From: Candidatus Poribacteria bacterium
GTDB taxonomy: Bacteria; Poribacteria; WGA-4E; WGA-3G
Reading direction: 5' to 3'
Assembly (NCBI GenBank): GCA_022822085.1
Contig: JAJECK010000078.1
Span: 1 to 38,567, forward strand
DNA length: 38,567 nt
In this document: piece by piece, positions 7,896 through 38,167 of the stretch
Numbering within the stretch: the first letter of the stretch is position 1
How the letters are laid out: each line of letters opens with the position of its first letter
The notes under the pieces: generated by a model
What the model was told of the DNA's origin: nothing
What the model saw: the letters and a program-made list of their open reading frames with translations, nothing else
Database searches by the model: none
Translations under genes and position numbers: made by a program

Positions 7896-7917
7896 GTATG
7901 GTAATGACGCACCATAC
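7896..7917. promoter_or_regulatory. Inverted repeat upstream of AAA+ regulator, possible operator
   Basis: A perfect inverted repeat GTATGGT - 8 nt - ACCATAC lies 79 bp before the regulator start codon. Its size and symmetry fit a dimeric DNA-binding protein site, perhaps for the regulator itself (Fis-type HTH). This is inference from symmetry only. Confidence 0.4.
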
Positions 7918-7996
7918 AACTAACAGCATTGAGGATATAAATTGCATAAACTTAAATATACTTCGTCCAGAATAATATATACTTAAGGAGCACATT

Positions 7997-9091
7997 ATGA
8001 ACAAGCAACCAGCATTCATCGAATTACCATCTGTTCCGATGCAGACGATCTATCAAAAAATCAAGCAGGTTGTAAATTCAAATATACCTTTTCTAATTAC
8101 AGGAGAAACAGGAGTTGGAAAGGAAGGAATCGCAAAATATATACACGAAAATAGCCCGCGCCGAGATAAACCGTTTGTTGCTATAAACTGTGGACGGTTC
8201 TCTGCTGAGCTGCTCCAAAGTGAACTTTTTGGGCATGAGGCAGGGGCATTTACCAGTGCAATCCGACAACGGCACGGGGCATTTGAACTGGCAGACGGTG
8301 GGATACTCTTCTTAGATGAAGTCCCCGAAATGTCTCTTGACGCACAGAAGATGCTCCTCCGAGTTTTAGACACAACTACTTTTACAAGACTCGGTGGAAA
8401 TCAAACATTGTCAGTTGATGTGCATATCCTCACTGCTACGAATAGAAATATTGAAAAAGTTGTTGGAGAACAGAAGTTTAGGGAGGACCTTTACTACCGA
8501 CTGAAAGGACTAATCCTTCATCTACCGCCGTTAAGGCACCGAACAGAGGACATTCCTCCGTTAGTAGATGCTTTTATTCATGAATTCAGTTCCGAATATG
8601 GTAAAGAGATAGCAGGAATTAGTCCCGAAGCACTGAACCACCTTCAGCACGCAGCGTGGCCCGGTAATATCCGGCAGCTGAGAAGCACAATACAAACGGC
8701 TATAGCACTTACAACATCAGATACACTTGAACCAAAAGATTTCCCAAACATCTATCCAGAGTTCTTGCACACGCTCATCTCAATTTGGGGCACACTGCCA
8801 GCGCAAACGCAGTACGCAATATGGGAATCCCTCCATCCAGAGACGCAGCATATCATAAGGCACGAATTCTCAAACCAGCTGCCACAACCGTGGTGTAGTA
8901 TGAGAAATTCAATTGGAACAAAAGATGAAGAAGTGTTAAATATCGCAGACATGAACCAAAATGAAATACTACGGGATGTTGCGCAAATGCGGATGCAAAA
9001 ATATTCATCAATGCGAGAGGCAGCTGAATCGTTAGATATTGATATACGGACGCTTCAGCGACACGCACAATGGAATAATGGTGACAACTAA
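7997..9091 (+). CDS. Sigma54-interaction AAA+ domain regulator with Fis-type HTH, no receiver domain
   Basis: The 364-residue protein begins almost directly with an NtrC-type AAA+ domain. Walker A is GETGVGKE (36-43), the sigma54 contact loop reads GAFTSA (83-88), Walker B is ILFLDE (103-108), and the arginine-finger region is FREDLYYRL (161-169), followed by LPPLRHRTEDIPPL. The C-terminal end MREAAESLDIDIRTLQRHA is a Fis-type helix-turn-helix. There is no N-terminal receiver, PAS or GAF domain, as in PspF-like activators, so control would be in trans. The region between AAA+ and HTH is longer than usual and rich in Trp and Gln. The start is well supported: AAGGAG at 7985-7990, 6 nt before ATG 7997. 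The GAFTSA loop departs from canonical GAFTGA, so sigma54 activation is not certain. Confidence 0.88.
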   Translation: MNKQPAFIELPSVPMQTIYQKIKQVVNSNIPFLITGETGVGKEGIAKYIHENSPRRDKPFVAINCGRFSAELLQSELFGHEAGAFTSAIRQRHGAFELADGGILFLDEVPEMSLDAQKMLLRVLDTTTFTRLGGNQTLSVDVHILTATNRNIEKVVGEQKFREDLYYRLKGLILHLPPLRHRTEDIPPLVDAFIHEFSSEYGKEIAGISPEALNHLQHAAWPGNIRQLRSTIQTAIALTTSDTLEPKDFPNIYPEFLHTLISIWGTLPAQTQYAIWESLHPETQHIIRHEFSNQLPQPWCSMRNSIGTKDEEVLNIADMNQNEILRDVAQMRMQKYSSMREAAESLDIDIRTLQRHAQWNNGDN

Positions 9092-9110
9092 TACTGTTAA
9101 CGCATAAGAG

Positions 9111-9261
9111 TAATACCATTTCTACTTTATAATGGACCTTTTTTGTTAGGTCGGGTAGAGGCACGAAACCCGACAGGTATTGATTGTGGGTATCATGTCG
9201 GGTTTCGTGCCTCTACCCGACCTACGGAAAAATGGTCTAAAAATAATTAGAATTGGTATAA
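9111..9261. repeat. MITE-like element, copy B, with perfect 29-bp internal palindrome
   Basis: The left end TAATACCATTTCTA (9111-9124) is intact; the right end (9248-9261) is slightly decayed. Inside is a perfect inverted repeat of 29 bp, arms 9147-9175 and 9196-9224, with a 20-nt loop. The arms contain the recurring core GTCGGGTTTCG and CTACCCGACCTA. It lies between the AAA+ regulator and uppP. As RNA it would form a very stable hairpin and could stop or shield transcripts. Confidence 0.75.
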
Positions 9262-9276
9262 CATCTCTTGGTAGAC

Positions 9277-9300
9277 AGGCGAGGTATACATACCTCGCCT
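9277..9300. repeat. Perfect 11-bp palindrome before uppP
   Basis: Arms AGGCGAGGTAT (9277-9287) and ATACCTCGCCT (9290-9300) are separated by only two bases. It lies directly upstream of the predicted -35 box of uppP, so it could be an operator or a terminator-like stem. Related small palindromes occur at 5656, 15749 and 22011, so it may simply be a dispersed repeat. Confidence 0.6.
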
Positions 9301-9307
9301 TATAAAC

Positions 9308-9336
9308 TTGCACGTCACCCCATTCATTGCTATAAT
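9308..9336 (+). promoter_or_regulatory. Sigma70-type promoter of uppP, apparently leaderless
   Basis: TTGCAC (9308-9313), a 17-bp spacer and TATAAT (9331-9336) form a near-consensus promoter. The predicted start of transcription, about 7 nt after the -10 box, falls on or next to the ATG at 9344. No Shine-Dalgarno precedes that ATG, which fits a leaderless mRNA. Confidence 0.65.
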
Positions 9337-9343
9337 AAACCTT

Positions 9344-10195
9344 ATGACATTTCTTGAAGCAATTCTTCTCGGTATTTTACAGGGACTAACAGAATTCCTC
9401 CCTATAAGTAGTTCAGGACACCTCGTCTTAGCACAGAAGTTCCTCGGATTAAAAGAACACCTCGTCTTTTTTGATGTGATGCTACATTTAGGCACACTGT
9501 TCGCTGTGCTTGTCGCATATCGTCAAGCATTAGGGAAATTAGTAGGGGTAGGTCTATCAACTCTTGCAAATGGACAATTTTATCGGAAGCCAATCTCAAC
9601 GATCAACACATCAGTTGAACTTAGATTTATATGGTTAATTCTGCTTGGCATGATTCCGACAGGGATCATTGCACTGCTATTCAAATCAGATTTAGAGTCC
9701 TTCTTTGATGATGTACAACTCGTCAGCATCATGCTTATCATCACCGGTATTATACTGCACTTACCTCGCCTTAGTAAACACAAGACCGTAAACTCCGATT
9801 CAGCACCAGATAAAATCCAAACATGGCATGCCCCCCTCATCGGCATTGCACAAGGATGCGCCATTACTCCCGGCATCTCTCGTTCTGGATCAACAATTTC
9901 ACTTGCGTTATTTTTGGGAATTCCAGCAAAAACCGCTGCAGAATACTCGTTCCTGCTCTCAATACCAGCAATACTTGGCGCAGTTGTGCTTAAAATTCGA
10001 GATATTGGTGACACACACATCCCTTACTACATCTTAGCAGCTGGAATGCTCGCTTCATTTGTTGTGGGTTATATTGCCTTGCGATTTCTATTGGCAGTGT
10101 TGAATCGTGGAAAATTCTCTCTCTTTTCCTATTACTGCGTGGCTTTGGGACTCATCTCGCTATATGTTTCTACCTTCGTTGCTCCAATCCAATAA
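9344..10195 (+). CDS. uppP: Undecaprenyl-diphosphatase
   Basis: This integral inner-membrane enzyme (283 residues) removes one phosphate from undecaprenyl pyrophosphate to recycle the lipid carrier for peptidoglycan and other glycans; loss or overproduction affects bacitracin resistance. The signature LPISSSGHL is at about 19-27 with E17 and H26 preserved, and the second signature PGISRSGSTI contains R180. Several hydrophobic segments of membrane-spanning length follow. The start ATG 9344 gives the family's usual N-terminus (MTFLEAILLGILQGLTEF); a TTG at 9308 belongs to the predicted -35 box instead. The 3' end overlaps the convergent methyltransferase by 64 bp. The neighbouring minus-strand glycan genes use the same kind of lipid carrier. 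Confidence 0.96.
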   Translation: MTFLEAILLGILQGLTEFLPISSSGHLVLAQKFLGLKEHLVFFDVMLHLGTLFAVLVAYRQALGKLVGVGLSTLANGQFYRKPISTINTSVELRFIWLILLGMIPTGIIALLFKSDLESFFDDVQLVSIMLIITGIILHLPRLSKHKTVNSDSAPDKIQTWHAPLIGIAQGCAITPGISRSGSTISLALFLGIPAKTAAEYSFLLSIPAILGAVVLKIRDIGDTHIPYYILAAGMLASFVVGYIALRFLLAVLNRGKFSLFSYYCVALGLISLYVSTFVAPIQ

Positions 10196-23237: not shown

Positions 23238-26200
23238 TCAATCTGTTTCGGTACCAAGTTGTGATCCATATAACGCATTTCTTACCAAGACAAGATCAGC
23301 AATATCAATCTGACCATCCTTGTTGATATCCGCGCAATTACCTATCTCAGTCTGTCCGATACGAGATGAAACGAATTCAAGATCTGCAGCATTTAATTGC
23401 CAATCTCGGTTGACATCCTCTGGTATCCGTTCCGGTTCAACGAGCCATGCATGACCAACCACTGGTCGTGAACGTTCACCGTTGTCAAACATAAGGCGTG
23501 CATCCGTTATTGTCAAGGTTACGTCTGCATGTTTTAATATTTCAAATGCAATGGTAGCGATTATGCCATCTGTTATGATAGAACCTTGTGAGGCATTGCC
23601 TGTGAAAGTAATCATATTATCACCTATAACAGGAGGTGATGGCTTTATATTGTTATCAGTAGCATTTTCTGTGTTAGGGATAAAACGGAGTGATTCGCTA
23701 TCATACTGCAACCCAAATTGAAATCCCGTGACATTTTGTGCATCACTCATATTGACGTTGAAAGTCAGGTGTTTACCAATAGGTGAAGCTTCTACTGTCA
23801 ACGGAGTGATATTCAAACGTGTGACGGGTGATGACCGCATTTTCCACAATAACACGGTGCCATCTTGACTTCCACTGGCAAGTACTGTCCCATCAGGTGA
23901 ATAAGCAAGTGTAGTTATAGGTAGGACATGATTAGGTTGAATTATACGGCGTTTTTTTGTTTCTACATCCCATACGTTAATTGTATATCTGTCATCATTT
24001 ATAACAATTGCGGCAAGTGTTGTGCCATCCGGTGAATAGACGATTTTTGAAGTGCTGATATATTTTGAACTTTCACCCTTTGAAAAGGCGTTCAAAGTAG
24101 AGATATGTTTTCCATTACTTACCTCCCAAAGTTTGATGGTAGCCCAATGAGTACTGGCAAGGGTTTCACCATCAGGTGAGAATGCAATTGACCCAACACT
24201 ATAGATATTTTCTATCAATGCCATGCGTTGGACACCGGTTTTTGTGTCCCACAACCTCATCTTTGTAATCGGATTCTCTTTATACGGAACCGCCCTACCA
24301 CTACTCGAGAGGATTTCACCGTCAGGAGAATAAGCTAAAGAAAGAACACCGTCTAAATGTCCCCAAAGCGTCATATCATGATCGCCACTCCGAGAATTTG
24401 CAATTCTAATTGAGTGTCCCCGCGCACTTGCAATAGTTTGTCCATCCGGTGAAAAAGTGAACACACTACCTCCTATTGCAGGCAATATCGCTTTGTGTTG
24501 TAACGTCTGGACATCATATAAGGAAGTCCCACCTTTACCTGTACTTGCAAGTGTCAGTCCATCTGGGGTAAATGAAACGTAATGCGCAATATTTTGATCG
24601 TCTTTATAGATCAGATTGGATTGACGGGTTTTCATATCCCACAAAAGTGTTTTCCCAGTCTCACTTCCACATGCAAGTCTTTTGCTATCTCGTGAAAAAG
24701 CAATTGAAGAAACTGCACCTGTATGACCTGTAAGTGTAAGACGAGGGATCTCTGTTTTGATGTCCAACAGTCGTATTTCTCCATCACATCCAGCAGTAGC
24801 AAGGATCGTTCCATCCGGTGAAAATGCTAATAAATCAATCCGATCCCTATGTGCTTCAAAAGTCGCTATGTTTTCACCCGTTAGTGTATTCCAAAGACGA
24901 ATAGTCTCATCAAGGCTTGCACTTGCAAGTATCTTTCCATCATGAGAAAACGCTAAAGATACCCAAGATTCATTGAAACCTGTAGACTTAATAGGTTTTG
25001 TATGTCCACTCAAGGTAATTCTCAGTTCCCCAGTTTGCGTGTCCAGCAACTGAATATTCCTCTTATCCTCGTAAGATTTATCGGCAACAAATGCACATAG
25101 TCGGTCAACCGGTGAGTTAATTCGCCGATGTGCGAAAATAGAAGCTAACCACTCCCATTTTGAAGTTAGATTCCTACTGTGATTTAATTCTCTATCTGAC
25201 TCAAAAAATCTAATGTGTTCACCAGTATGTGGATTCCACACCCAAAACATGTTCCCATTACCGTAATGAGCACCTGCCAACATGCTACCTTCTGCTGAAA
25301 ACGCAATTTTGTCAATTCTTTTGATAGCCCCAAACCTTGATCTGTTTTCCAGTGTTGCAAGTAATTCAGATGTCCATGGATTCCATAACTGCATTATTCC
25401 ATCATGACTTCCACTTGCAAGGACATTCCCATGAGGAGAAAATGCAATAGACGTAACGGGTGCTGTATGCCCGGTCAAGAGTGCCAGTTCTTCACCAGTA
25501 TCAGCGTCATAAAGCCATATCCCCGCTGAACCGGCAACAACGAACAATGACCCATCAAGAGAAAATGCGATGTCGTTTATTGTCCCTTTGCCGAGTCTCC
25601 CTACTGCCCCCTCCGGTAATGAAAACAGTGTATGAATAGTGTCAATATCCGGATCAAATCTGGAATCATTGTTGGTAACAACGTCAGTATGTGATGACGC
25701 AAAGAGAGATGCATTTTTAATTACAGGAATGGCATAAATACCATTATGCATTACAAGTTTCACCTTCGGCAAACGCAATGATGTAGGTTGCTTAGTGAGT
25801 ATTTCAAATGTTACTTTGGCAAGGGAACCTGCCCCAGATACGGTTGACTTACTAACCCGTTTAAACCTAACATTATGTCTTTTAGGTTGATGCGTACTCG
25901 TAATCCTAATCATAGATAAATGCTGATTGACAAGTGAAAATGATGGATATGCAACTTTAACTTGAGATGATATTTCTCCGTTGAGATAGTCACCATTTTT
26001 CGCAGAAAGGTAACGAAGGACACTTGTATCATACTCAAGAAAAATCTGATAACCTGTGATGTTCTTGCCATCAACAATGTTAACATTAAAGGTAATATGT
26101 TCACCAGAGGAAAGAGAATCGATTGGATCGGGAATAACACTTACAATTGCATCTGTATCAACGGAAGGGGTTATGTCCCACAATAGAATAGTTCCAACAC

Positions 26201-28025
26201 CTTTGCTGACTAAAGTGTTATCGCCATTGGCAAACACCACAAAATAGGGACTATTTGTATGTCCAACCAGCACTCCTTTATACCCGCCTGTGGCAGTATC
26301 CCACAACCGAATGGTATTGTCTGCACTCGTACTTGCAAATGTAGCATGGTCTTTAGAGAATGCAAACGATCTGATTGAATTTGCCCCCCAGGGCGACCTA
26401 TGTCCAGAAGTAGGAATATATGTATTTATCCGAAGGTTCCACAAGCCAACATCACCCCACGAATTTCCACCCGCAAGCAAGGTGCCATCTTCAGAGAATG
26501 CCAAAACACTTGATCCATTTACCATATCTTCAAGCGATCCGATATGTTTCATATTGACCAGATCCCACAACTGAATTGTGTCGTCGTCTGCAGCACTCGC
26601 GAGCGTTGTACCATCCGGAGAAAATGCTATCACTGAGATTCTATCTGTGTGTTTATTGAATAGCGCACGTTGTTCGCCTGTGGATGTGTCACACAATTCT
26701 ATCGTCCCATCTGAATTACCCACTGCCAGTATGTCTCTTTCAGGTGATAACACCCTTGTACGACCATTAATCTTTATATCAGAGATTGTACTGGGTGGAT
26801 TGGGAAGTGTTTGTTTATGTTTTTCTCTCTCAACATCCCATACCAAAATATGTTCTTTATCTTTACTCCTTAAGGTCGAACCATCATAAGAAAATTTGAG
26901 TGAATAAACAGGATGCGTATGACCAATTAGTGTAGTCTTTAACTTCCCAGTATCTGCATCCCACAACTGAATTTTCTTATCATATCCGACTGCTAATAAC
27001 TTTCCATCCGGGGAGATAGCGGGATAAGTCATGTTCGGTGAATGTATAAAGGTGTTTTTGAGTTCACCGGTTTCCGGATCCCATGCCCGAAATGTACCAT
27101 CCCTATGCCCGCTCATAAGCGTATTTCCATCTGGAGAGAATGTAATTACATTCGCCGAATAGCTATTTCCTGCGAGAGTCGTTTCATGTTCTCCTGTCTC
27201 AAGATTCCACAAACGAATTGTTTCGTCATAGCTTCCGCTTGCAAGTGTTTTTCCGTCAGGTGAAAATGCTACGGAGTTGACACCTTCGGTATGTCCTATA
27301 AAAATTTCTATGTTTTCACCAGTTTGTGCGTCCCACAAACACACAAGCTTGTCCTTGCTGCCACCACTTGCTAACATCTTGCTATCTGGTGAAAAAGCCA
27401 ACGGAGACATCCAATGTTCGTGTGCTGTAAAGGATATCTTACGTTCTCCGGTATGTGCATCCCACAATTGAACAGTCCTACCTGCTTCACTCACTATCGT
27501 ATTTCCATCAGGTGAATATGCTACACTCACACGACTACTCCTATGCCCCGTAAGTTTGGTTTTCAATTTTAGGGTTTGGACATCCCACAAATCTACATCA
27601 TAACCCGCACCTGCCAACGTCTTTCCATCCGGGGAAAATGCAATATGGGTTGCATTGGCTGAAATAGTCGCTTTATGTTTGCCAGTGTGCACATCCCAAA
27701 GACGGACCGTATCGTCATAACTCGCACTCACCAGTGTTTTCCCATCAGGAGAAAATGCAATGGATGTAACGTCTCTTGTATGACCAGCAAACAATGCCAG
27801 AACATCTCCTGTGTTTGCATCATATAACCAAATCCCGATAGAACTTCCCACCGCAAGTTTTTCACCATCTGGTGAATACTTAATATCATTTATGTTGCCT
27901 TTGCCGATGCGTGCCTTAACTCCCACAGGTAAATACCAATAAGCAGGATCATCCGCAACGGTGTTTGATATAAATAGGGTAAACAATAACAGCATAAGTA
28001 TAATTGTAAGTCGGATATAGTTCAT
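23238..28025 (-). CDS. Secreted WD40 giant: two propeller-cohesin modules plus C-terminal dockerin (unit 2, long)
   Basis: This 1595-residue protein has a Sec signal peptide at about 1-24 (ends in NTVADD). Module 1 starts with the cap LPVGVKARIGKGNINDI and has about 14 WD40 blades of the form FSPDGxxLASGSxDxTIRLWD. A cohesin-like domain follows at about 625-790, with GYQIFLEYDTSVLRYLSAKN and VTFEILTKQPTSLRLP. Module 2 restarts at about 800 with FSLPEGAVGRLGKGTINDIA, again many blades, and a second cohesin-like domain near 1400-1525. A type I dockerin ends the protein (about 1537-1590): DVNRDWQLNAADLEF and DINKDGQIDIADLVL are its two Ca2+ loops. No enzyme domain was seen. It lies 36 bp after the short partner and is most similar in layout to 30867-35609. 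An extracellular scaffold or adhesin role is inferred. Confidence 0.88.
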   Translation of the reverse strand: MNYIRLTIILMLLLFTLFISNTVADDPAYWYLPVGVKARIGKGNINDIKYSPDGEKLAVGSSIGIWLYDANTGDVLALFAGHTRDVTSIAFSPDGKTLVSASYDDTVRLWDVHTGKHKATISANATHIAFSPDGKTLAGAGYDVDLWDVQTLKLKTKLTGHRSSRVSVAYSPDGNTIVSEAGRTVQLWDAHTGERKISFTAHEHWMSPLAFSPDSKMLASGGSKDKLVCLWDAQTGENIEIFIGHTEGVNSVAFSPDGKTLASGSYDETIRLWNLETGEHETTLAGNSYSANVITFSPDGNTLMSGHRDGTFRAWDPETGELKNTFIHSPNMTYPAISPDGKLLAVGYDKKIQLWDADTGKLKTTLIGHTHPVYSLKFSYDGSTLRSKDKEHILVWDVEREKHKQTLPNPPSTISDIKINGRTRVLSPERDILAVGNSDGTIELCDTSTGEQRALFNKHTDRISVIAFSPDGTTLASAADDDTIQLWDLVNMKHIGSLEDMVNGSSVLAFSEDGTLLAGGNSWGDVGLWNLRINTYIPTSGHRSPWGANSIRSFAFSKDHATFASTSADNTIRLWDTATGGYKGVLVGHTNSPYFVVFANGDNTLVSKGVGTILLWDITPSVDTDAIVSVIPDPIDSLSSGEHITFNVNIVDGKNITGYQIFLEYDTSVLRYLSAKNGDYLNGEISSQVKVAYPSFSLVNQHLSMIRITSTHQPKRHNVRFKRVSKSTVSGAGSLAKVTFEILTKQPTSLRLPKVKLVMHNGIYAIPVIKNASLFASSHTDVVTNNDSRFDPDIDTIHTLFSLPEGAVGRLGKGTINDIAFSLDGSLFVVAGSAGIWLYDADTGEELALLTGHTAPVTSIAFSPHGNVLASGSHDGIMQLWNPWTSELLATLENRSRFGAIKRIDKIAFSAEGSMLAGAHYGNGNMFWVWNPHTGEHIRFFESDRELNHSRNLTSKWEWLASIFAHRRINSPVDRLCAFVADKSYEDKRNIQLLDTQTGELRITLSGHTKPIKSTGFNESWVSLAFSHDGKILASASLDETIRLWNTLTGENIATFEAHRDRIDLLAFSPDGTILATAGCDGEIRLLDIKTEIPRLTLTGHTGAVSSIAFSRDSKRLACGSETGKTLLWDMKTRQSNLIYKDDQNIAHYVSFTPDGLTLASTGKGGTSLYDVQTLQHKAILPAIGGSVFTFSPDGQTIASARGHSIRIANSRSGDHDMTLWGHLDGVLSLAYSPDGEILSSSGRAVPYKENPITKMRLWDTKTGVQRMALIENIYSVGSIAFSPDGETLASTHWATIKLWEVSNGKHISTLNAFSKGESSKYISTSKIVYSPDGTTLAAIVINDDRYTINVWDVETKKRRIIQPNHVLPITTLAYSPDGTVLASGSQDGTVLLWKMRSSPVTRLNITPLTVEASPIGKHLTFNVNMSDAQNVTGFQFGLQYDSESLRFIPNTENATDNNIKPSPPVIGDNMITFTGNASQGSIITDGIIATIAFEILKHADVTLTITDARLMFDNGERSRPVVGHAWLVEPERIPEDVNRDWQLNAADLEFVSSRIGQTEIGNCADINKDGQIDIADLVLVRNALYGSQLGTETD

Positions 28026-28061
28026 TTGTTTATTCCTTTTGTATATCTATCGTTTTAATGT

Positions 28062-30668
28062 CTATTCCCTCGTTACGACAGGACGTAACCTGTATCCTTC
28101 TCCATCAGAGAGTATTGAATTTATGATTTTCAGAGCTGTCGGTTCCTCAGCAACAACTTCAAAAATCACACTCGCGAGTGTCCCATCACCATTGCCTGTA
28201 TTTGTTATCGCAGTAGATGTAAGCGTCACCTTATTCCTATCCACAATCGGTTTCGCAAAAAATGCATTTTCTCCCAGATAATCACCTTTCGTACAAGAAA
28301 CAAACCGCAGTGACGATTCATCATAATCAAGCGTTAACTGATATCCTGATACATTTTTTCCACCAACAATCTCAATATTGAATAACTGCTGTTCTCCAAT
28401 AACCATAGTCTTAACTTGTGCAGGATTGACTTTCAAAACAACGTCTGTGTTAGCAGTTTCAATCGGATCCCACAATACGATAGAACCACTATAACTTGCA
28501 AGCATTGTGCTGTTCGGGGCAAAAGCTAATGAAATTACTCCCCCTTGATCAAGAACGGCTTTCTTCTGAAGGAATTGGACATCCCACACTTGAATAGAAT
28601 CGGAGTTGAATCCACCACAGACAAGCAGTATCCCATCTGCTGAAAAGGCAAGGGAACTGACACCGTTAGCATCTCCAGGAAGTCTTGCACGGATTTTGCC
28701 TGATGCCGTATCCCATAGTATAATTTCATCAGACTGCCAATCCCCACTTGCAAGTAGCATCCCATCAGGAGAAAACGCTAAAGCGGAAATATTATAGCCT
28801 AAATGCCCTAAAAGCGGTTTCTTCTGCTTACCAGTGCGTGTTTCCCATAGGTGTATAATCCGATTTCCCTCTCCGCCACAACTGGCAAGGGTTTTACCGT
28901 CCGGTGAAAACTGGAAGGCAGAAATCCTGCTTTGATGTTCATCCAGAATTGCGATCTGTTTTCCACTATGTGCATCCCACAAATATATTTTATCCCATGT
29001 AGCACTCGCGATAGTCTTTCCATCAGGAGAATATGCTATTTTTAATACCTCCTTCTCATGTCCATCGAGCGTCCTTCTATATTTGACATCAAACTGATTA
29101 TCAGGATGTTGTGTGTTTATATCCCATAATCGGACGGTCTTGTCCGCACTGCCGCTGGCAAGTGCCTTTCCATCCGGAGAAAAGACTACCGCGTTAACAG
29201 CATCCGTATGTCCTTCAAGCGTTAAAATCTCTCTGCTCGCTTGGACCTCCCATAAACGCACTGTTTTGTCTGCACTACCAGTGGCAAGTATGGAACCATC
29301 AAGAGAGAACGCAAGAGATCTAACAGCTTCTGTATGTCCAATTAGTGTAGATCGATATTTTCCCGTTTTCACATCCCACAACCAAATTCTTTCACCATCT
29401 CCACTGGTGATTGTGCTACCATCAGGGGAAAATTCCATCATACTTCTGCCATAATAGACTACGGGGCCAATAGTCGCTTTATACTTACCTGTACTCACCT
29501 CCCAAAGTAAAATCTCCCTTGAAGTGTTACTAATCGTAAGAAGCGTTGAACTGTCAGGAGAAAACAGCAGAGACCAGAAGTCTTCTTTGTTTCCTTTTAG
29601 AGTAGATCGAAGTTTGCCCGTGTTAGCATCCCACAACCGAATGATTTTACCATGACCACCACTGGCAACCGTTGCCATATCAGGTGAAAATCTGAAGGAA
29701 TTCGTCTGATCAGAAAATCCGTTAAGCGTGGTATGCTGTTCACCTGTCCGTAAATCCAATACCCTAATTGAGGCTCCATCTAGGGTAACATGCAGAATCT
29801 TCCCATCTGCGGAGAAGCCAACTGTGGGGTGAGATTCATCACCATCATAATTTGCGATCTTAATTCCACTTCCCACTTTCCACACCTTTACCACTCCATT
29901 AGCATCTGAACTGAGCAGGTGCGTAGTGTCTTGTGAGAATGCTAAGGAGTTAGCACCAATTGTCCGCCACTGACTGTCTGAACTGCTCTTGAGCATTCTG
30001 TGTTGACCTGTCGCAATGTTCCAGATACTTATGTTTCCAGCCGTACTTCGACAAGCAAGCATTGCACCATCTGAAGAGAATGCCAAAGCGGTTATCCAAC
30101 CTATTTGTCCTGTCAAAGTTGTTTTGAGTTTTCCGGTCTCAATATCCCACAATCGGATTGCACTATCAATCGATTCATCATCATTAGGAAGCGAATCTTC
30201 CTCATTCCAAAAAATACCACTACTATGCTGTGCTCCGCTTGCGAGCGTGTTCCCATCCGGAGAAAACGCGAAGACTGTCGGAATACCCGTATGTCCCAAC
30301 AAAGTCATTTTATGGTCAAAGGTGTTCATATTCCACAAACGAATTGTCAGGTCGTGACTACCACTCACGAGAGTTTTGCCATCTGTCGAAAACGCAACCG
30401 ATGTGATAGGTTCTGTATGTCCAGTAAGTAGTGTAAGTTCAGTACCGTCGTTAGCATCATAAAGCCAAATCCCGATATAGGCATGGGCAACGGCTAAGCA
30501 AGTAGCATCAGGTGAAAACGCATAATCTGTTTTGTGTGATCCTCCAAGACGCACCTTAGCACCTTCCGGCAGCATCGGTGATCTACGTCGCCCGTGTGCA
30601 AAGATGTTTGTCGGAAACAATCCAGTCGTCAACAATAGAATTGTGATAAAAATATGAATCACTTTCAT
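28062..30668 (-). CDS. Secreted WD40-cohesin protein (unit 2, short)
   Basis: This 868-residue protein has a signal peptide at about 1-24 (ends IFAHG). The cap segment LPEGAKVRLGGSHKTDYAFS is followed by about 16 WD40 blades, enough for two propellers. The first blade ends GIWLYDANDGTELTLLTGHT, the same first-blade signature as in all four proteins. The C-terminal ~125 residues are a cohesin-like domain: VIGEQQLFNIEIVGGKNVSG, YQLTLDYDESSLRFVSCTKG, LASVIFEVVAEEPTALK. No dockerin. Two neighbouring blades (LATGSADKTVRLWE and LASGSADKTVRLWD) are nearly alike, a sign of blade duplication. A GGAGAGA ribosome site precedes ATG 30668. It is the paralogue of 35606-38167 and probably pairs with the long protein downstream. 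Confidence 0.88.
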   Translation of the reverse strand: MKVIHIFITILLLTTGLFPTNIFAHGRRRSPMLPEGAKVRLGGSHKTDYAFSPDATCLAVAHAYIGIWLYDANDGTELTLLTGHTEPITSVAFSTDGKTLVSGSHDLTIRLWNMNTFDHKMTLLGHTGIPTVFAFSPDGNTLASGAQHSSGIFWNEEDSLPNDDESIDSAIRLWDIETGKLKTTLTGQIGWITALAFSSDGAMLACRSTAGNISIWNIATGQHRMLKSSSDSQWRTIGANSLAFSQDTTHLLSSDANGVVKVWKVGSGIKIANYDGDESHPTVGFSADGKILHVTLDGASIRVLDLRTGEQHTTLNGFSDQTNSFRFSPDMATVASGGHGKIIRLWDANTGKLRSTLKGNKEDFWSLLFSPDSSTLLTISNTSREILLWEVSTGKYKATIGPVVYYGRSMMEFSPDGSTITSGDGERIWLWDVKTGKYRSTLIGHTEAVRSLAFSLDGSILATGSADKTVRLWEVQASREILTLEGHTDAVNAVVFSPDGKALASGSADKTVRLWDINTQHPDNQFDVKYRRTLDGHEKEVLKIAYSPDGKTIASATWDKIYLWDAHSGKQIAILDEHQSRISAFQFSPDGKTLASCGGEGNRIIHLWETRTGKQKKPLLGHLGYNISALAFSPDGMLLASGDWQSDEIILWDTASGKIRARLPGDANGVSSLAFSADGILLVCGGFNSDSIQVWDVQFLQKKAVLDQGGVISLAFAPNSTMLASYSGSIVLWDPIETANTDVVLKVNPAQVKTMVIGEQQLFNIEIVGGKNVSGYQLTLDYDESSLRFVSCTKGDYLGENAFFAKPIVDRNKVTLTSTAITNTGNGDGTLASVIFEVVAEEPTALKIINSILSDGEGYRLRPVVTRE

Positions 30669-30731
30669 GGAAATGTCTCTCCATAGATGTTCAAGTGTTT
30701 ATCACTATCTAAGCAATTTGTGTGCCAACAT

Positions 30732-30760
30732 CATTTACCGACAGTACGCAGTTTTGTCAA
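30732..30760 (-). promoter_or_regulatory. Possible promoter for the second WD40 unit
   Basis: On the minus strand TTGACA (30760-30755), a 17-bp spacer and a weak -10 TAAATG (30737-30732) lie between the two WD40 units. A perfect -35 with a poor -10 suggests an activator-dependent or weak promoter; it would let unit 2 be expressed on its own. Confidence 0.35.
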
Positions 30761-30830
30761 CATCAAATTCGGAATTCGCACAAAGATGTACATTGGGTGT
30801 ACCAAATCGTGCATTTAAACTTCATGGGAT

Positions 30831-30849
30831 GGGTTGAGGAACGAAACCT
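30831..30849. repeat. Half copy of the MITE-like palindrome arm
   Basis: GGGTTGAGGAACGAAACCT matches, in reverse complement, the right arm of MITE-like copy D (21901-21921) with one change. The other arm is missing. It lies between the two WD40 units, just beyond the stop of the first long gene. Confidence 0.5.
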
Positions 30850-30866
30850 ACGAACTGGAACAATTA

Positions 30867-33800
30867 TTACTCTGTGGCGGGTTTAGGGAGGGTACCGCTC
30901 AACGCATTCGCAACAAACACAAGATCTGCAAGATCAACAACACCGTCTCTGTTAACATCCGCACTCATATCTTTTCCTGTCTGTCCAAGACGCGCAGAGA
31001 CAAATTCAAGATCCGCATCATTCAACTGCCAATCACCGTTAACGTCTCCCGGAATACGAGGGGGTGTTACAACCCATGCATACACAGGAACAGAAAGTAT
31101 CCGTTCATTGCTATCGGCAGTCAAGGTGATAGTTGAATCTGCAATCTCAAGAACTTCAAAAGTGACGGTAGCAAGGGAACCATCCGCATCAGTGGCATTT
31201 CCCGAAATTGTAATCGTGTTTTCCCCCGCAACAATCTTCGGTTGATCTATTTCTCGGTTAGGAATATATCGGAGGGCAGATGCATCATACTGCAACCTAA
31301 ATTGATAATCGGAAACGTCTTGTCCACTGACCAAATTAATGTTAAAGGTGATGTGTTCACCAACAGAGGGTAATTCAACGAAATGCGGTGTGATGTTCAA
31401 CCGTGTTGTAGGTGATGGACTTATCTCCCACAATAGCACTGTGCCATCTTTGCTCCCACTCACAAGTGTTGTGCCATCTGCTGTATATGATAAGGATGTG
31501 ACAAAACCAGTATGTCCTTTTAACGTGTTTTGAAGTTTTTCTGTTTCTACATCCCAAACATTGATATTAGAATAGTAACCTGTACTGGCAATTGTCCTAC
31601 CATCCGGCGAAAATGATACAGTAAAATATTCATCATAATGAGAAAGTGAATGACCTGAACTGACTACCAGACTGGATATATGTTTTTTTCTGTCTACATC
31701 CCACAACTGCACGTCAGCACTCCGATCTATACTTGCAATTGTCTTCCCATCTGGCGAAAACGCGACAGAGGTAATAGAAAGAGGGTTTTCATTATTTTCA
31801 CGCAATAAATTTGTAAATTTTGCACGCTGTTTGCCTGTTGTTGTCTCCCATACTTGGACAGTCCTGTCATTTTCATCAAAACCACTTCCACTAGCAAGCA
31901 ATGACCCATCAGACGAAAACGCTATAGAATTGATGCGACCAGTGTGACCTTGAAGTGTTTTTGTCCGCTCACCGCTGCGAATATCCCATAGCCATATCAA
32001 GTTGTGTTCGTAACTCGCAAGTGTTTGTCCATCTGGTGAAAATATTACTTTAGGAGCACGATTTTTATGCCCTTCGATTGTTTTCTTAAGTTCACCATTG
32101 TATGTTTCCCATAACAGGATCCTACTTCTTTCTCCACTTGCGAGAATCGTGCTGTCTGGAGAAAATACAGGAGGAGAGAATCCTATCTCCGATTTAATCC
32201 TTGCTTTATGTCGTCGCGTTTGCAGATCCCACAGTTGTATGTATTTACTATCAGTTAGCGTTGCGAGGTGTTTCCCATCATCTGACAATGCTATCGATTC
32301 GATTAGTCCACCATAACCTGCGACTGAAATAAGAGTTTCTCCTGTTTCTATGTCAAATACATGAATTCCATTATCTTTTGTTGCCCGTGCCAGTGTGATT
32401 CTATCTACGACAAATGGTAACAGGCTATATTTGTCATATTCTGCTTTTCCAAAAGGTTTTATATTTTCACCGGTTTTTATGTTCCACTCTTGTAATGTGC
32501 CATCGCGACTTCCAGAGATAAGTGTATTCCCATCAGGAGAGAATTGAACAGTGGAAATAGGGTATGATAATCCAGGTCTATCTTCTTCAGCGAGGGTAGC
32601 TTGCAGTTCACCTGTTTGTGTGTTCCATAATTTAATTCTCTTGTTTGTCCCTCTCATGTTGTCCACTGCAGTACTGGCGAGTATTTTTCCATCAGGTGAA
32701 AATGAGAGTCTTGGCCCACCGAATCTAAAGCGTATTGTAGTTGTTCCTCCACCACTTCCTTCATCAAAGGTAAATATCTGCTGTCCAGTTGTTGTATCCC
32801 ATAGTTGGATAGTATCGCTTAAAGTTGCGCTTGCAAGGGTTTGTCCATCTGGAGAGAAAACTAAATAAAAGATGGAACTCCCTCCCTGGGTAATGTTGAG
32901 TTTATGATTCCCTGTATATGTATCCCATAGTTGGATCATTTGAACGCCTCCACCTGCTGTATTTGCAAGCGTTCTGCCATCTGGCGAAAATGCTATTGCT
33001 GAGATGTCAGGTTTGGCATCAAGTACTCTAAGCAATTGGTGTGTATGTGGATTCCATATACGGAGTTTTCCATCATAATCAGCACTCACAAGCAGATCAC
33101 CGTGAGGAGAAAAGTCTATTACTGTGGATGGTTTCGTGTGTTTAGTAAGGAGTGCGAGTTCCTTCCTAGTGTTAGCGTCATATAACCAGATTCCTGTTGA
33201 ACTTGATACTGCGAGTAGTGTTTTTTGTGGTGATAACTTCATGTCGTTAACAACGCCTTTTCCTAATCGAGCAATTGCCCCTTCAGGTAAGGAGAATTGT
33301 GTGTAATCAGTTGGTTTATCTTCATCAGTGGGTGGTGTTACAACGGAACCCTGGACAATGATAGGTAGTGCGTGACTACCATCACTTTTTTTAATCCGTA
33401 CTTTTGATAGTTTTAAGGTTGAGGGTTTCTGAGCAATGACTTCAAAAGTGATACTTGCGAGTGTTCCATCACCATCTTTAGATTCTGACGATGTGTTTTC
33501 AAGATTGACTCGATTTGGATGTTGTTTATATACACTGTCTAATATAGTTTTAAGAGATGTGTCGTTTGAAAGATAGTCTCCATTTTCGCTTGAGATGTAG
33601 CGGAGTGTAGTGTTGTCAAAATCCACTGTGATCTTATAGCCGTTAACGTTTCTCGCACCAGAAACGTCTATGTTTAGGGTCAGTTGTTCACCAATGGCAG
33701 GAGATTGAATTGGAGATGGAGAAATACGTACGATGGCACTCGTTTCAACAAAGGGTGTTGTGTCCCAAAAGAGGATTGTTCCATCACGACTACTGCTAAT

Positions 33801-35609
33801 AAGGCGATCATGTGTGGTTGAAAATACTAATGAAATGATTTCATCAACATGTCCAATGAACATATTTCTCCGGTTGCCAGTTGCTGTATCCCATAGACAT
33901 ATCGTATGGTCCTTACTTCCACTTGCAAGCGTTGAACCGTCATTAGAAAATGCCAACGAACTGATGCTGCGATTGGTGTCTGATGCCTGATGTCCGAGGG
34001 TAGATGTGTAAGTTCCAGTGTTTAGATTCCATAAGTGAACTTGACCGTAGTTGTTTCCCCTTGCGAGTATAGTGCTGTCTGATGAGAATGTTAGAACTTC
34101 AGTTGAACCACCTTTATTGTGTAAAGTTGCTTTATGTTGAGCAGTGTCGACCTCCCACAATTGAATTGTATTGTCTTCGCCAGTTGTCGCAAGTATACTG
34201 CTGTCTGTAGAGAAGGCTATGACAGAAACGGGTTTCGTATGTTTTTTCAGTATAGCTGCTTGTTTTCCTGTCTGTGTGTCCCACAATTCTAACGTGCCAT
34301 CTTTGTTGCGTTTAACATAAGTGGTCCCGTCCGGTGATAATCCGTTTGGATAAAAAACAGGTTTTGTAGGAGAATCGTCAATGGATACTCTTGTATCTTT
34401 AAGCAGAGTACCTGTGCGTGCATCCCACAAACGAGATTCAATTACACTTCTGCTTGTGAGGGTTGTGCCATCCTGTGAGAAAATAATTGAGGAAATTTTA
34501 TGCGTATGTCCTGTTAAAGTTGTTTTCTGTTTTAGAGTGTCAGTGTCCCACAGTAGTATTTCTTTATTTCCTGTGGTAGCAAGTGTTTTACTATCTGGGG
34601 AAAGAGCAATAAGCGGTGCGTTGAGTGTATGAAAAATTGCATTCTTATATTGGTCAGCTCGTTCATTCCAAAACCGAATTGTCCCGTCATCACTGCCACT
34701 TGTAAGTATACCTGTTTCTGACGAGTAGGTTAAAGTGGAAACACTTCCAGTATGTCCTGTGAGTGTTCCTAATAGTATCTCTGTTTTTGGGTTCCATAGT
34801 CGTATTGTATTATCCCAACTTCCGCTTGCAAGTATTATGCCATTTGGCGAGAATGCTACTGCATTGACACTTGAAGTATGTCCTGTGAGTGTTCCTAATA
34901 GTATCTCTGTTTTTGGGTTCCATAGTCGTATTGTATTATCCCAACTTCCGCTTGCAAGTATTGCGCCGTCAGGGGATATTGCTGTTGAACTGATAGGTCT
35001 CGTATGTCCAGTGAGGATTCTGGTGCGTTCACCTGTTTCTAGATCCCATAGGCGAATGGTGTTATCAGCATTTCCACTGATTAATGTCTTCCCATCTGGT
35101 GAGAACGTGAGAGCACTTGAACTCCCGCTGTGTGCATTGATATTTGTTCTTTGTTTGAGTGTATCGGTGTCCCATAGTTGAATGTCATAGCTTGCACTTG
35201 CTATAGTTTTGCCATCGGGAGAAAATAGGACGGTACTCAGAAATGCTTTGAGCGTAGCATTATGTTCCCCTGTTTTTGTATTCCACAATCGAATCGTTTG
35301 GTCGTAGCTTGCACTTGCGAGGGTTTTACCATCTGGTGAAAACGCAACTGAAGCAACAGGCTGCGTGTGTCCGGTAAGCAGAAAAAGCTCCTCCCATGTG
35401 TGTGTATTGTATACCCATGTTCCAATGTAGGTGCCGACAGCCAGCAGCGAACCATCTGGTGAATAGGCAATATTCGTTATTTTTCCTTTCCCTATACGTC
35501 CTATTGCATTTTCAGGGAGTTGCCACTCGGAAGTATCTTTTGCTACACCGATTGATACACATAGAAAGACGCATAATATTATGAGTGTAAAAAGTCCTTT
35601 ATATTTCAT
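30867..35609 (-). CDS. Secreted WD40 giant: two propeller-cohesin modules plus C-terminal dockerin (unit 1, long)
   Basis: This 1580-residue protein has a signal peptide at about 1-23 (ends IGVAKD). Module 1 starts LPENAIGRIGKGKITNIAYS and has about 14 blades, then a cohesin-like domain at about 625-770 (GYKITVDFDNTTLRYISSEN; LASITFEVIAQKPSTLKL). Module 2 starts near 775 with FSLPEGAIARLGKGVVNDM, with a similar number of blades and a second cohesin-like domain near 1403-1515 (YQFRLQYDASALRYIP). The dockerin at about 1518-1575 has two clear Ca2+ loops, DVNGDWQLNDADLEF and DVNRDGVVDLADLVF. Start ATG 35609 overlaps the stop of the short gene by four bases (ATGA), so the pair is translationally coupled. 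Blades 5 and 6 share an exact 88-bp DNA repeat. The function is not known; noncatalytic binding is likely. Confidence 0.9.
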   Translation of the reverse strand: MKYKGLFTLIILCVFLCVSIGVAKDTSEWQLPENAIGRIGKGKITNIAYSPDGSLLAVGTYIGTWVYNTHTWEELFLLTGHTQPVASVAFSPDGKTLASASYDQTIRLWNTKTGEHNATLKAFLSTVLFSPDGKTIASASYDIQLWDTDTLKQRTNINAHSGSSSALTFSPDGKTLISGNADNTIRLWDLETGERTRILTGHTRPISSTAISPDGAILASGSWDNTIRLWNPKTEILLGTLTGHTSSVNAVAFSPNGIILASGSWDNTIRLWNPKTEILLGTLTGHTGSVSTLTYSSETGILTSGSDDGTIRFWNERADQYKNAIFHTLNAPLIALSPDSKTLATTGNKEILLWDTDTLKQKTTLTGHTHKISSIIFSQDGTTLTSRSVIESRLWDARTGTLLKDTRVSIDDSPTKPVFYPNGLSPDGTTYVKRNKDGTLELWDTQTGKQAAILKKHTKPVSVIAFSTDSSILATTGEDNTIQLWEVDTAQHKATLHNKGGSTEVLTFSSDSTILARGNNYGQVHLWNLNTGTYTSTLGHQASDTNRSISSLAFSNDGSTLASGSKDHTICLWDTATGNRRNMFIGHVDEIISLVFSTTHDRLISSSRDGTILFWDTTPFVETSAIVRISPSPIQSPAIGEQLTLNIDVSGARNVNGYKITVDFDNTTLRYISSENGDYLSNDTSLKTILDSVYKQHPNRVNLENTSSESKDGDGTLASITFEVIAQKPSTLKLSKVRIKKSDGSHALPIIVQGSVVTPPTDEDKPTDYTQFSLPEGAIARLGKGVVNDMKLSPQKTLLAVSSSTGIWLYDANTRKELALLTKHTKPSTVIDFSPHGDLLVSADYDGKLRIWNPHTHQLLRVLDAKPDISAIAFSPDGRTLANTAGGGVQMIQLWDTYTGNHKLNITQGGSSIFYLVFSPDGQTLASATLSDTIQLWDTTTGQQIFTFDEGSGGGTTTIRFRFGGPRLSFSPDGKILASTAVDNMRGTNKRIKLWNTQTGELQATLAEEDRPGLSYPISTVQFSPDGNTLISGSRDGTLQEWNIKTGENIKPFGKAEYDKYSLLPFVVDRITLARATKDNGIHVFDIETGETLISVAGYGGLIESIALSDDGKHLATLTDSKYIQLWDLQTRRHKARIKSEIGFSPPVFSPDSTILASGERSRILLWETYNGELKKTIEGHKNRAPKVIFSPDGQTLASYEHNLIWLWDIRSGERTKTLQGHTGRINSIAFSSDGSLLASGSGFDENDRTVQVWETTTGKQRAKFTNLLRENNENPLSITSVAFSPDGKTIASIDRSADVQLWDVDRKKHISSLVVSSGHSLSHYDEYFTVSFSPDGRTIASTGYYSNINVWDVETEKLQNTLKGHTGFVTSLSYTADGTTLVSGSKDGTVLLWEISPSPTTRLNITPHFVELPSVGEHITFNINLVSGQDVSDYQFRLQYDASALRYIPNREIDQPKIVAGENTITISGNATDADGSLATVTFEVLEIADSTITLTADSNERILSVPVYAWVVTPPRIPGDVNGDWQLNDADLEFVSARLGQTGKDMSADVNRDGVVDLADLVFVANALSGTLPKPATE
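34749..34962. repeat. Recent WD40 blade duplication (88 bp identical, 126-bp period)
   Basis: Bases 34749-34836 and 34875-34962 are identical. The 126-bp offset equals 42 codons, exactly one WD40 blade, so the frame is kept. Both encode the stretch LASGSWDNTIRLWNPKTEIL and the following GTLTGHT. Confidence 0.95.
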
Positions 35610-38167
35610 TTTATTTCCACCTTCCCACTTTTAACCGTCGGACGAATACGATTACCACCTCGGTCAGATATGCTTGCATTGTGTAGACTTACCGTTGAAG
35701 TTTTAACATCAACGACCTCAAAAGTTACGGTTGCAAGCGTACCATCTCCACTCACTTCACCTGTGAGTGCTGTTGATGTTAATGTTATCTGCCCATTCTC
35801 TATAACCGGTTTCACAAAGATCGCATCATCAGAAAGATAGTCACCATTCGTTGCAGATATATATCGGAGTGCTGATGTATCATATTGCAAAGTGAACTGG
35901 AACGCAGCAACTTTTTCACCACCCACAATCTGAACTTTGAACGCCAACTGTTCTCCAATTTCTAGGGACACAACAGATGAAGGTGTGATATTTATTACTA
36001 CGTTTTTATCAACAGTTGCAATCGGTTTCCACAAGACAATCGTTTGGTCGAAACTTGCACTTGCCAGTGTGTTACCATCTCCGGTAAATGCTAACGAAGT
36101 GATACGTTGCCCGTGCCCTTTCAAAGTCGCTTTATGTTGCCGAAATCCGACATCCCATACATCAATTTGCCCCCCGCTGGCACCTGCAAGGAGCGTACCA
36201 TCCGGCGAAAACACTAACGCGAGCACACCACCCCACGAACGCTCTGTAGGAATCGAACTATTTTCACCTGTTTTAGTATTCCACAATTGAACTGTACCAT
36301 CCCCGCTTGCAAGGAGCGTACCATCCGGTGAAAATGCTAAGGCGGTCACGCTGTTAGCATGTCCTATATACGTGGTTTTTAGTTTTTTTGTTCGGATGTC
36401 CCACAGATGAATTGCAGTGTCCCCATGGCTGCCGCTGGTTGCGAGTGTTACACCATCTGGCGAGAACGCTATGGTAGACACACGATTCGGATGTTCTTCA
36501 AAAGTGCCTTCGTGTTTTCCTGTATCTACGCTCCACAAATGAAACTTTGATCTGTTGAATTGTCGGAATCCACTTACGCTTGCGAGTGTTAAACCGTCTC
36601 CAGAGAATGCTACCGCATTTACTTGACGGATTCCATAAGCAGGATCCGGTTGTTCTTCAAGTGTTCCAAGGTGTAGGTTGGTTTGTGTACTCCACAACCG
36701 TACAGTTCCATCATTGCTTGCGCTTGCAAGCATTACACCATCTGGTGAGAATGCTACGGAATTAACTAAATCCGTATGTCCTAAAAAGGTTTTAAGGTAT
36801 TTGCCTGTGTTTCCATCAAATAACCAGATTTTAGTATCTCCGATCCCACATGCAAGCATGCCATCTTTGCCTGATGCAACGAATGCAGGTTGACCAGAAC
36901 GTCCACTGTCTTTCATATATGGAATTGTTCCTGTCTCTGTTTTAGAAGGAATATCCCATAATCGAATAACATATCCAATATCTTTCGGATGCGTAATATC
37001 ACTTCGTGTATAACTCATCATTGCAAGAGTTTGGTTGTTGGGAGAAAAACCAAGAGAGAAAACTCTGACATTTATGGAAAGGTGTGAAAGCGTGTTTCCT
37101 GTTTTTGTATCCCATATCTGAATAGGTTCTTTATTCCAATCTTGCTGGATTGAAAGCATTCTGCCATCTGGAGATAACGCCATGGGAACAAAATGGCCAT
37201 CGTTATCAATTGGAATAGTAGAGTGTTGTTGTCCAGTGCGTGCATTCCACACTCGAATCTCAGACCACTTCGGACCAATTGTAATAAGTGTTTCACCATT
37301 TTGGGAAAATATAACAGATTGCGAAATACTGTTCGGACCTTCTTCAAGTGTTGTGAGTTCTTTCCCAGTGCTGGCATCATACAAGATTTTTTCGTCTTTA
37401 CTTTCCCAAACGAAACGCGTGCCATCGGGTGAGAAATGTCGGGCACCATAGAAGTTTTTTGCATCAAATTGTTCGTCTTTTCCTGTTTCGGTATTCCAGA
37501 TACGATAAATCCCATCAGTACTGACGCATATAAGCGATATGTCGTCAGACGCATACACCAATCTATTCACCCAACCACTATTTGTTGTAAGCATTGTCTT
37601 AATAAGTTCACCTGTCGCAACATTCCAAAGACGCACTCTACCATCTATAACTTTTTCAGGTTGAGATTCTTTATCGCTTGGTTCTAAAACTACGAAACCC
37701 CTCCGAGGTAGTCGTTCAGGGAAAACTTGATGGCTTGCACCTGTCGCAAGATGTTTACTGTCCGATGAAAACGCTAGGACATTGGTGTTCCCGAGATGTC
37801 CCTCAAGTGTCGCACGATGTTCAAAAGTCTGTGCATCCCACAAGCGAACCGTTTTATCAAGGCTCCCGGTTGCAATCGTTTTCCCATCAGGTGAATACTT
37901 TATAGCAGTAATAGTGTCGGTATGTCCAGCAAGTAGAGCAAGTTCAGCACCTGTCCGTCCATCATAAATCCAGATGCCGGAATAAGAACAGACAACTGCA
38001 AGTTGCGTGCTATCGGGTGAAAACACATACTGTGTAATATCTCTGTTGCTAATACGCATTTCTGCCTCTTCAGGCAACACTCGCTGCGGACCTAATGGTC
38101 TTCCATTGGCGAATACCTCAGGAACCAAAATAACTACACTCAGCAATAGCAACACAAACCTTTTCAT
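35606..38167 (-). CDS. Secreted WD40-cohesin protein (unit 1, short)
   Basis: This 853-residue protein has a signal peptide at about 1-20 (ends VFANG). After the cap LPEEAEMRISNRDITQYVFS come about 15 blades; the first ends GIWIYDGRTGAELALLAGHT. Middle blades (about 200-430) are diverged and irregular, while those near 440-700 keep the FSPDGxxLAS...VRLWxTxTG consensus. A cohesin-like domain fills about 725-853: LEIGEQLAFKVQIVGGEKVA, FQFTLQYDTSALRYISATNG, LATVTFEVVDVKTSTVSL. No dockerin, no enzyme domain. It is the first gene of the cluster, with a GAGGT ribosome site before ATG 38167, and its stop overlaps the next start by four bases. Equal stoichiometry with the long partner is plausible from that coupling. 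Confidence 0.9.
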   Translation of the reverse strand: MKRFVLLLLSVVILVPEVFANGRPLGPQRVLPEEAEMRISNRDITQYVFSPDSTQLAVVCSYSGIWIYDGRTGAELALLAGHTDTITAIKYSPDGKTIATGSLDKTVRLWDAQTFEHRATLEGHLGNTNVLAFSSDSKHLATGASHQVFPERLPRRGFVVLEPSDKESQPEKVIDGRVRLWNVATGELIKTMLTTNSGWVNRLVYASDDISLICVSTDGIYRIWNTETGKDEQFDAKNFYGARHFSPDGTRFVWESKDEKILYDASTGKELTTLEEGPNSISQSVIFSQNGETLITIGPKWSEIRVWNARTGQQHSTIPIDNDGHFVPMALSPDGRMLSIQQDWNKEPIQIWDTKTGNTLSHLSINVRVFSLGFSPNNQTLAMMSYTRSDITHPKDIGYVIRLWDIPSKTETGTIPYMKDSGRSGQPAFVASGKDGMLACGIGDTKIWLFDGNTGKYLKTFLGHTDLVNSVAFSPDGVMLASASNDGTVRLWSTQTNLHLGTLEEQPDPAYGIRQVNAVAFSGDGLTLASVSGFRQFNRSKFHLWSVDTGKHEGTFEEHPNRVSTIAFSPDGVTLATSGSHGDTAIHLWDIRTKKLKTTYIGHANSVTALAFSPDGTLLASGDGTVQLWNTKTGENSSIPTERSWGGVLALVFSPDGTLLAGASGGQIDVWDVGFRQHKATLKGHGQRITSLAFTGDGNTLASASFDQTIVLWKPIATVDKNVVINITPSSVVSLEIGEQLAFKVQIVGGEKVAAFQFTLQYDTSALRYISATNGDYLSDDAIFVKPVIENGQITLTSTALTGEVSGDGTLATVTFEVVDVKTSTVSLHNASISDRGGNRIRPTVKSGKVEIK

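What the first reader, a model, noticed from the sequence alone, without database searches (positions are those of the whole stretch)
23238..38167. Tandem-duplicated short-long operon of secreted WD40-cohesin-dockerin proteins
Seen: four adjacent minus-strand genes (853, 1580, 868, 1595 aa) alternate short-long-short-long. Each has a signal peptide. Six modules in all share one plan: a cap (LPEgA..R.GKG), a first blade ending GIW.YD, many WD40 blades, and a cohesin-like domain. Only the two long proteins add a dockerin. Known: cohesin and type I dockerin bind each other in cellulosomes, and WD40 propellers are binding platforms; eukaryote-like repeat proteins are reported from Poribacteria. 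Inference: a self-assembling extracellular scaffold made of propellers, without enzymes, which I do not know as a described system. Possible roles are host or particle adhesion, matrix building, or capture of dockerin-bearing enzymes encoded elsewhere.
Basis: partly seen in the sequence, partly recalled or inferred. Interest (0 to 1): 0.85.

Follow-up and report, generated by a model that had tools for sequence, protein, structure and literature searches.

The report
Propeller proteins with cohesin-dockerin connectors
A Poribacterium carries paired genes for exported proteins built from WD40 propellers plus the connector domains (cohesin and dockerin) best known from cellulose-digesting complexes; this suggests a propeller-based protein scaffold, although the assembly itself is untested.

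Summary
Four adjacent minus-strand genes (853, 1580, 868, 1595 aa) encode signal-peptide proteins with the plan [double WD40 propeller, cohesin], once in the short ones and twice in the long ones; only the long ones end in a type I dockerin. All six cohesins and both dockerins exceed Pfam's cut-offs. The organism is a Poribacterium. The short-long pair is a real, old unit: seven loci in six of 85 Poribacteria genomes, always adjacent and overlapping or within 36 nt; neither type was found alone. The three cohesin positions form three clades. The two window pairs are only 41-43% identical, so this is no assembly artefact or recent duplication. New context: cohesin-dockerin tandems are phylum-wide (78 of 85 genomes). 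The host genome has 46 dockerin and 21 cohesin proteins; 29 of the dockerin proteins carry a type IX sorting tail, and SprA, PorV and PorU-like genes are present. The four window proteins lack that tail. At least two dockerin-bearing sulfatases exist, so the genome-wide network is not enzyme-free. Best reading: a non-cellulosomal cohesin-dockerin scaffold of diverging propellers. Binding and extracellular location remain inferred.

The parts
35606..38167 (-). short protein S1 (853 aa): signal peptide, double WD40 propeller (15 blade hits), one cohesin, no dockerin
36002..38080 (-). S1 WD40 propeller region
   Evidence: blade HMM; AlphaFold2 model pLDDT 77.8 with double-propeller PDB matches
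35675..35977 (-). S1 cohesin
   Evidence: Pfam PF00963 55.9 bits; HMM bounds
30867..35609 (-). long protein L1 (1580 aa): two propeller-cohesin modules and a terminal dockerin; start overlaps the S1 stop by 4 nt (ATGA)
33735..35519 (-). L1 first WD40 region (14 blades)
33399..33713 (-). L1 first (internal) cohesin
   Evidence: Pfam 36.7-37.4 bits
31401..33287 (-). L1 second WD40 region (14 blades)
31113..31379 (-). L1 second cohesin
   Evidence: Pfam 36.4-36.5 bits; the listed PDB matches of the model are all from cohesin entries
30903..31049 (-). L1 dockerin (two F-hands; Trp at loop position 6 of the first)
   Evidence: Pfam PF00404 32.8 bits
28062..30668 (-). short protein S2 (868 aa): signal peptide, double WD40 propeller (16 blade hits), one cohesin
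28443..30572 (-). S2 WD40 propeller region
28116..28418 (-). S2 cohesin
   Evidence: Pfam 38.3-39.3 bits
23238..28025 (-). long protein L2 (1595 aa): two propeller-cohesin modules and a terminal dockerin
26151..27926 (-). L2 first WD40 region (14 blades)
25761..26123 (-). L2 first (internal) cohesin, the longest branch of its clade
   Evidence: Pfam 35.9 bits
23820..25613 (-). L2 second WD40 region (13 hits, probably 14 blades)
23499..23798 (-). L2 second cohesin
   Evidence: Pfam 47.4 bits
23274..23420 (-). L2 dockerin
   Evidence: Pfam 35.6 bits

Best explanation
The four genes are two diverged copies of an ancient, tightly linked Poribacterial gene pair. Each pair makes two Sec-exported scaffold proteins with no recognised catalytic domain. 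The short one (S) has two WD40 propellers closed by a cohesin. The long one (L) has two such modules and a terminal calcium-type dockerin. In the proposed mechanism the dockerin of L binds a cohesin on S, on another L, or on the many cohesin-bearing proteins of the same cell. This would give a noncovalent, calcium-dependent, propeller-rich scaffold whose diverged propellers present ligand-binding faces. The likely anchors are the WD40-cohesin-dockerin or LRR-cohesin-dockerin proteins that carry a type IX secretion sorting tail. Shown: domains, gene pairing, conservation, separate cohesin clades, the genome-wide repertoire and the presence of T9SS genes. Inferred: that cohesin binds dockerin here, which partners pair, extracellular location, and ligand binding.
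For: Cohesin and dockerin families exceed the curated cut-offs. The cohesin-dockerin profile hits cellulosomal scaffoldin and dockerin structures, and the listed PDB matches of the modelled L1 C-terminus are all from cohesin entries. The S1 model (pLDDT 77.8) matches double WD40 propellers, with the Nostoc propeller 2ymu best. The S-L order is kept in seven loci of six genomes, with 4-nt ATGA overlaps or short gaps. Profiles for S and for L give a score gap that puts both only in the same six of 85 genomes. Cohesins split by position into S, LN and LC clades across genomes, so the roles have been kept apart. In L the dockerin is 78% identical among diverged copies while the propellers are 40-41%. 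The genome holds 46 dockerin and 21 cohesin proteins, 29 of the dockerin proteins with a T9SS-type tail (tail families), plus SprA, PorV family and Peptidase_C25 genes.
Against: No binding evidence. Most Poribacterial relatives carry cohesin directly followed by dockerin in one chain, which could close on itself. Other WD40-cohesin-dockerin proteins also show conserved dockerins (64-73%) and diverged propellers (39-40%), so that contrast is not special to L. The four window proteins have no T9SS tail, so they may stay in the periplasm. Position 6 of the first dockerin loop is Trp instead of Gly in nine of ten L proteins, which may weaken one calcium site. The modelled dockerin was low-confidence.
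Confidence: 0.5

Rival explanations
1. Structural-unit reading: the cohesin and dockerin are neighbouring stalk domains that pack within one chain (in L) or have lost binding; the proteins are ordinary exported WD40 ligand-binding proteins that do not assemble through these domains.
For: Cohesin followed by dockerin with a short linker is the standard C-terminal arrangement in Poribacteria (16 of 21 cohesin proteins in this genome also have a dockerin; 78 of 85 genomes match the tandem profile). Both domains vary in company with everything from LRRs to solute-binding proteins.
Against: S proteins end in a cohesin with no dockerin, and 30 dockerin proteins in this genome have no cohesin, which is what a trans-binding network looks like. 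Solved cohesin-dockerin relatives bind in trans (established knowledge).
Confidence: 0.25
2. Periplasmic reading: because the four lack a T9SS tail, S and L stay in the periplasm and act there as a binding or organising platform for dockerin-bearing proteins such as the dockerin-tagged solute-binding proteins.
For: No tail on any of the four or on the C14 copies, while 29 of 46 dockerin proteins have it; two family-5 solute-binding proteins carry an N-terminal dockerin.
Against: Other export routes were not examined, and docking to a tailed partner could hold them at the surface.
Confidence: 0.2
3. Enzyme-capture reading: S and L are receptors for dockerin-bearing enzymes encoded elsewhere (sulfatases), in effect a small cellulosome-like complex aimed at sulfated host glycans.
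For: At least two sulfatases with dockerin and tail on contig C124.
Against: Those sulfatases carry their own sorting tail; most dockerin partners seen are LRR, WD40, cadherin or FG-GAP proteins, not enzymes.
Confidence: 0.15

Closest known systems
Cellulosomal scaffoldins (type I/II cohesin-dockerin, e.g. Acetivibrio cellulolyticus adaptor scaffoldin, Clostridium thermocellum CipA)
   Same: Cohesin fold and type I dockerin with two F-hands; multi-cohesin protein ending in a dockerin, as in primary and adaptor scaffoldins.
   Different: Cohesins are separated by double WD40 propellers instead of linkers and a cellulose-binding module; no cellulases nearby; short partner with one cohesin; Poribacteria.
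Non-cellulosomal cohesin-dockerin systems (Peer et al. 2009, not held; Cloacimonadota Ca. Stygibacter, PMC8542988)
   Same: Cohesin and dockerin domains on exported proteins outside cellulolytic clostridia; in Ca. Stygibacter the scaffoldin has a C-terminal domain for surface attachment.
   Different: Ca. Stygibacter has a cohesin/CBM scaffoldin with dockerin enzymes; here WD40 propellers are the repeating unit, cohesin and dockerin share chains, and the S/L proteins lack the tail.
Poribacterial WD40 proteins with Por sorting tail (Kamke et al. 2014, PMC3909097)
   Same: WD40 proteins of the same phylum, many with TIGR04183-type tails.
   Different: That paper's main text does not mention cohesin or dockerin and reported no Por secretion genes; here both domains and SprA/PorV/PorU-like genes are found, and the S/L proteins have no tail.
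Double WD40 propeller proteins (Nostoc 2ymu, Pwp2, Gemin5)
   Same: About 14 blades in two propellers in one chain.
   Different: Those have no cohesin or dockerin; most are intracellular eukaryotic proteins.

Membership tests
Cohesin (PF00963) | Profile score above curated cut-off and cohesin fold | tested here: met
   six of six above 24.1 bits; the listed PDB matches of the modelled L1 second cohesin are all from cohesin entries
Cohesin (PF00963) | Binds a dockerin | not testable with these tools
   no binding assay or complex prediction available
Type I dockerin (PF00404) | Two F-hand calcium loops, score above cut-off | tested here: met
   35.6 and 32.8 bits; D-x-N-x-D...D ligands kept in both loops in the ten L proteins, with Trp or Arg at position 6 of loop 1
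Cellulosome | Scaffoldin with several cohesins plus dockerin-bearing glycoside hydrolases and a carbohydrate-binding module | tested here: not met
   no glycoside hydrolase among the window's other proteins and none among the non-WD40 dockerin proteins scanned; no carbohydrate-binding module seen; not all 46 dockerin proteins were scanned
Non-cellulosomal cohesin-dockerin system | Cohesin and dockerin modules on exported proteins outside a cellulosome | tested here: met
T9SS cargo | C-terminal type A sorting domain | tested here: not met
   absent from S1, S2, L1 and L2; present in 29 other dockerin proteins; TIGR04183 29.7 bits on one of them
WD40 double propeller | About 14 blades forming two propellers | tested here: met
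   13-16 blade hits per module; S1 model and PDB matches

The most novel reading that the evidence does not exclude
S and L assemble through calcium-dependent cohesin-dockerin contacts into an enzyme-free surface lattice of WD40 propellers, anchored by type IX-sorted cohesin-dockerin proteins: a new kind of bacterial surface scaffold with constant connectors and diversifying propellers, used for contact with the sponge host or particles.
Probability: 0.2. Interest if true: 0.8.

Novelty: new variant of a known kind. Interest (0 to 1): 0.58.

Why it matters
Cohesin-dockerin chemistry is known mainly from cellulosomes. Here it is found across an uncultured phylum known from sponges, joined to propellers, LRRs, cadherins and sulfatases and to type IX sorting tails. 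If it assembles, it gives a concrete hypothesis for how Poribacteria build their surface and why they are so rich in eukaryote-like repeat proteins. Each cohesin and dockerin can be tested as a small recombinant domain without culturing the organism.

Tried and rejected
Assembly artefact or recent duplication: rejected, the copies are 41-43% identical and fall into old clades. 'Dockerin specially constrained in L': weakened, other WD40-cohesin-dockerin proteins show 64-73% dockerin identity. Dockerin specificity code: L dockerins read mostly AA or DA, then IA, at loop positions 10-11, against mostly IL/IQ/IA in others; suggestive only. Cohesin-dockerin model: dockerin part below pLDDT 50 with four sequences, so no interface was read from it. 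A coevolution test of cohesin against dockerin was considered and not run: too few sequences. The long-branch tree places of S2, L2 and G027 are not relied on. Promoter and terminator scans gave no more than shuffles.

Full report
What is there. Four minus-strand ORFs of 853, 1580, 868 and 1595 aa alternate short (S) and long (L). A WD40 HMM grown from these proteins finds 15, 14+14, 16 and 14+13 blades; each module ends in a cohesin and only L1 and L2 end in a dockerin. Pfam scores for all six cohesins and both dockerins exceed the curated cut-offs. The A1 profile (C-terminal cohesin plus dockerin of four L proteins) matches scaffoldin cohesins and CelD-type dockerins in the PDB. An AlphaFold2 model of the L1 C-terminus has a moderately confident cohesin, and its 50 listed PDB matches are all from cohesin entries; its dockerin part is not confident. 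The S1 model (pLDDT 77.8, pTM 0.68) matches double WD40 propellers, the Nostoc repetitive propeller 2ymu first.

Whose genome. The nearest named relatives are Poribacteria MAGs. The window is a whole contig (C45, 38567 bases) of a 5.6 Mb, 158-contig genome; the array starts about 400 bases from the contig end, so it may continue.

The gene pair. The same genome has a second cluster, S-L-L, on C14. Five other genomes have S-L or S-L-L: G034, G035, G042 and G032 in the same genus and G027 in another genus of the family. The junctions are tight: ATGA 4-nt overlaps at S1/L1, C14 and G035, gaps of about 1-15 bases in G034, G042, G032 and G027, and 36 nt at S2/L2. Profile searches of 85 Poribacteria genomes put L-type and S-type sequences above a clear score gap only in these same six genomes; both profiles were built from known members, so very diverged members could be missed. 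G034 and G035 have the pair beside the same two downstream genes as the window, an aminotransferase and gcpE (window genes; read from the ORFs of the relatives).

Age of the duplication. S1 and S2 are 41% identical, L1 and L2 43%. A tree of 78 cohesins puts S, LN and LC cohesins in three groups, each on one side of a branch (support 80/75, 100/98, 95/84). Thus the positions have been kept distinct since before these genomes split, and the tandem is old.

The wider system. Cohesin-dockerin tandems occur in 78 of 85 Poribacteria genomes. In the window's genome I count 51 proteins with cohesin and/or dockerin: 46 with dockerin, 21 with cohesin, 16 with both, 29 dockerin proteins with a C-terminal tail. 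The tail is a FlgD_ig/Por_Secre_tail/TIGR04183 type IX sorting domain. Partner domains are WD40, LRR, cadherin, lamin-tail, FG-GAP/ASPIC, spondin-N, von Willebrand A, family-5 solute-binding proteins and at least two sulfatases. The genome has a SprA homologue (81% identical to a relative's protein that matches TIGR04189 at E 7e-46 but below its cut-off), PorV family proteins above cut-off and three Peptidase_C25 genes. Kamke et al. 2014 (PMC3909097) reported the sorting tail on Poribacterial WD40 proteins but no Por secretion genes. S and L proteins have no such tail, so their final location is open.

Mechanism. Most likely S and L are scaffold proteins whose dockerin and cohesins make noncovalent links within the pair and with tailed cohesin/dockerin proteins at the cell surface; the diverged propellers would be the variable binding faces. 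The domain facts are shown; every binding step is inferred. In L the dockerin is 78% identical among diverged copies against 40-41% for propellers, but other WD40-cohesin-dockerin proteins show a similar contrast, so this marks the architecture in general.

Known or new. No held paper joins Poribacteria with dockerin and none found describes WD40-cohesin-dockerin proteins. A scaffoldin with a surface-attachment tail and dockerin enzymes is described for Cloacimonadota (PMC8542988). The present system is a new variant of the non-cellulosomal cohesin-dockerin kind, not a cellulosome.

Noticed in passing
G000:C122:42902-49321 (L098): SprA/Sov-like T9SS translocon gene (2159 aa) in the window's genome, with weak SprA_N matches in 78 of 85 Poribacteria genomes; PorV family and Peptidase_C25 genes also present. 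An earlier single-cell study reported no Por secretion genes in Poribacteria.
   Followed up: partly
G000:C124:3118-7307 (L052): Two adjacent sulfatases (SGSH-like) with dockerin and T9SS-type tail; a third similar ORF follows at 7304-9379 (not scanned).
   Followed up: partly
G000:C25:63320-65068 and C31:8008-9741 (L032, L034): Family-5 solute-binding proteins with an N-terminal dockerin right after the signal peptide.
   Followed up: no
G000:C122:16883-32947 (L051): Cluster of dockerin-tail proteins, most with LRRs, three of the four with cohesins and one with three of them; their cohesins form a separate long-branched clade.
   Followed up: no
window 30903-31049 and 23274-23420: Trp in place of Gly at position 6 of the first dockerin calcium loop in nine of ten L proteins (Arg in the tenth); not seen in the other dockerins of this genome that were aligned.
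   Followed up: partly
L057:5889-10588 (same locus as L091): The long gene of G035 is split in two frames; pseudogene or sequencing error not decided.
   Followed up: no
window 2443-3636 and 4252-5442: Two von Willebrand A proteins flanking a DUF2250 protein.
   Followed up: no
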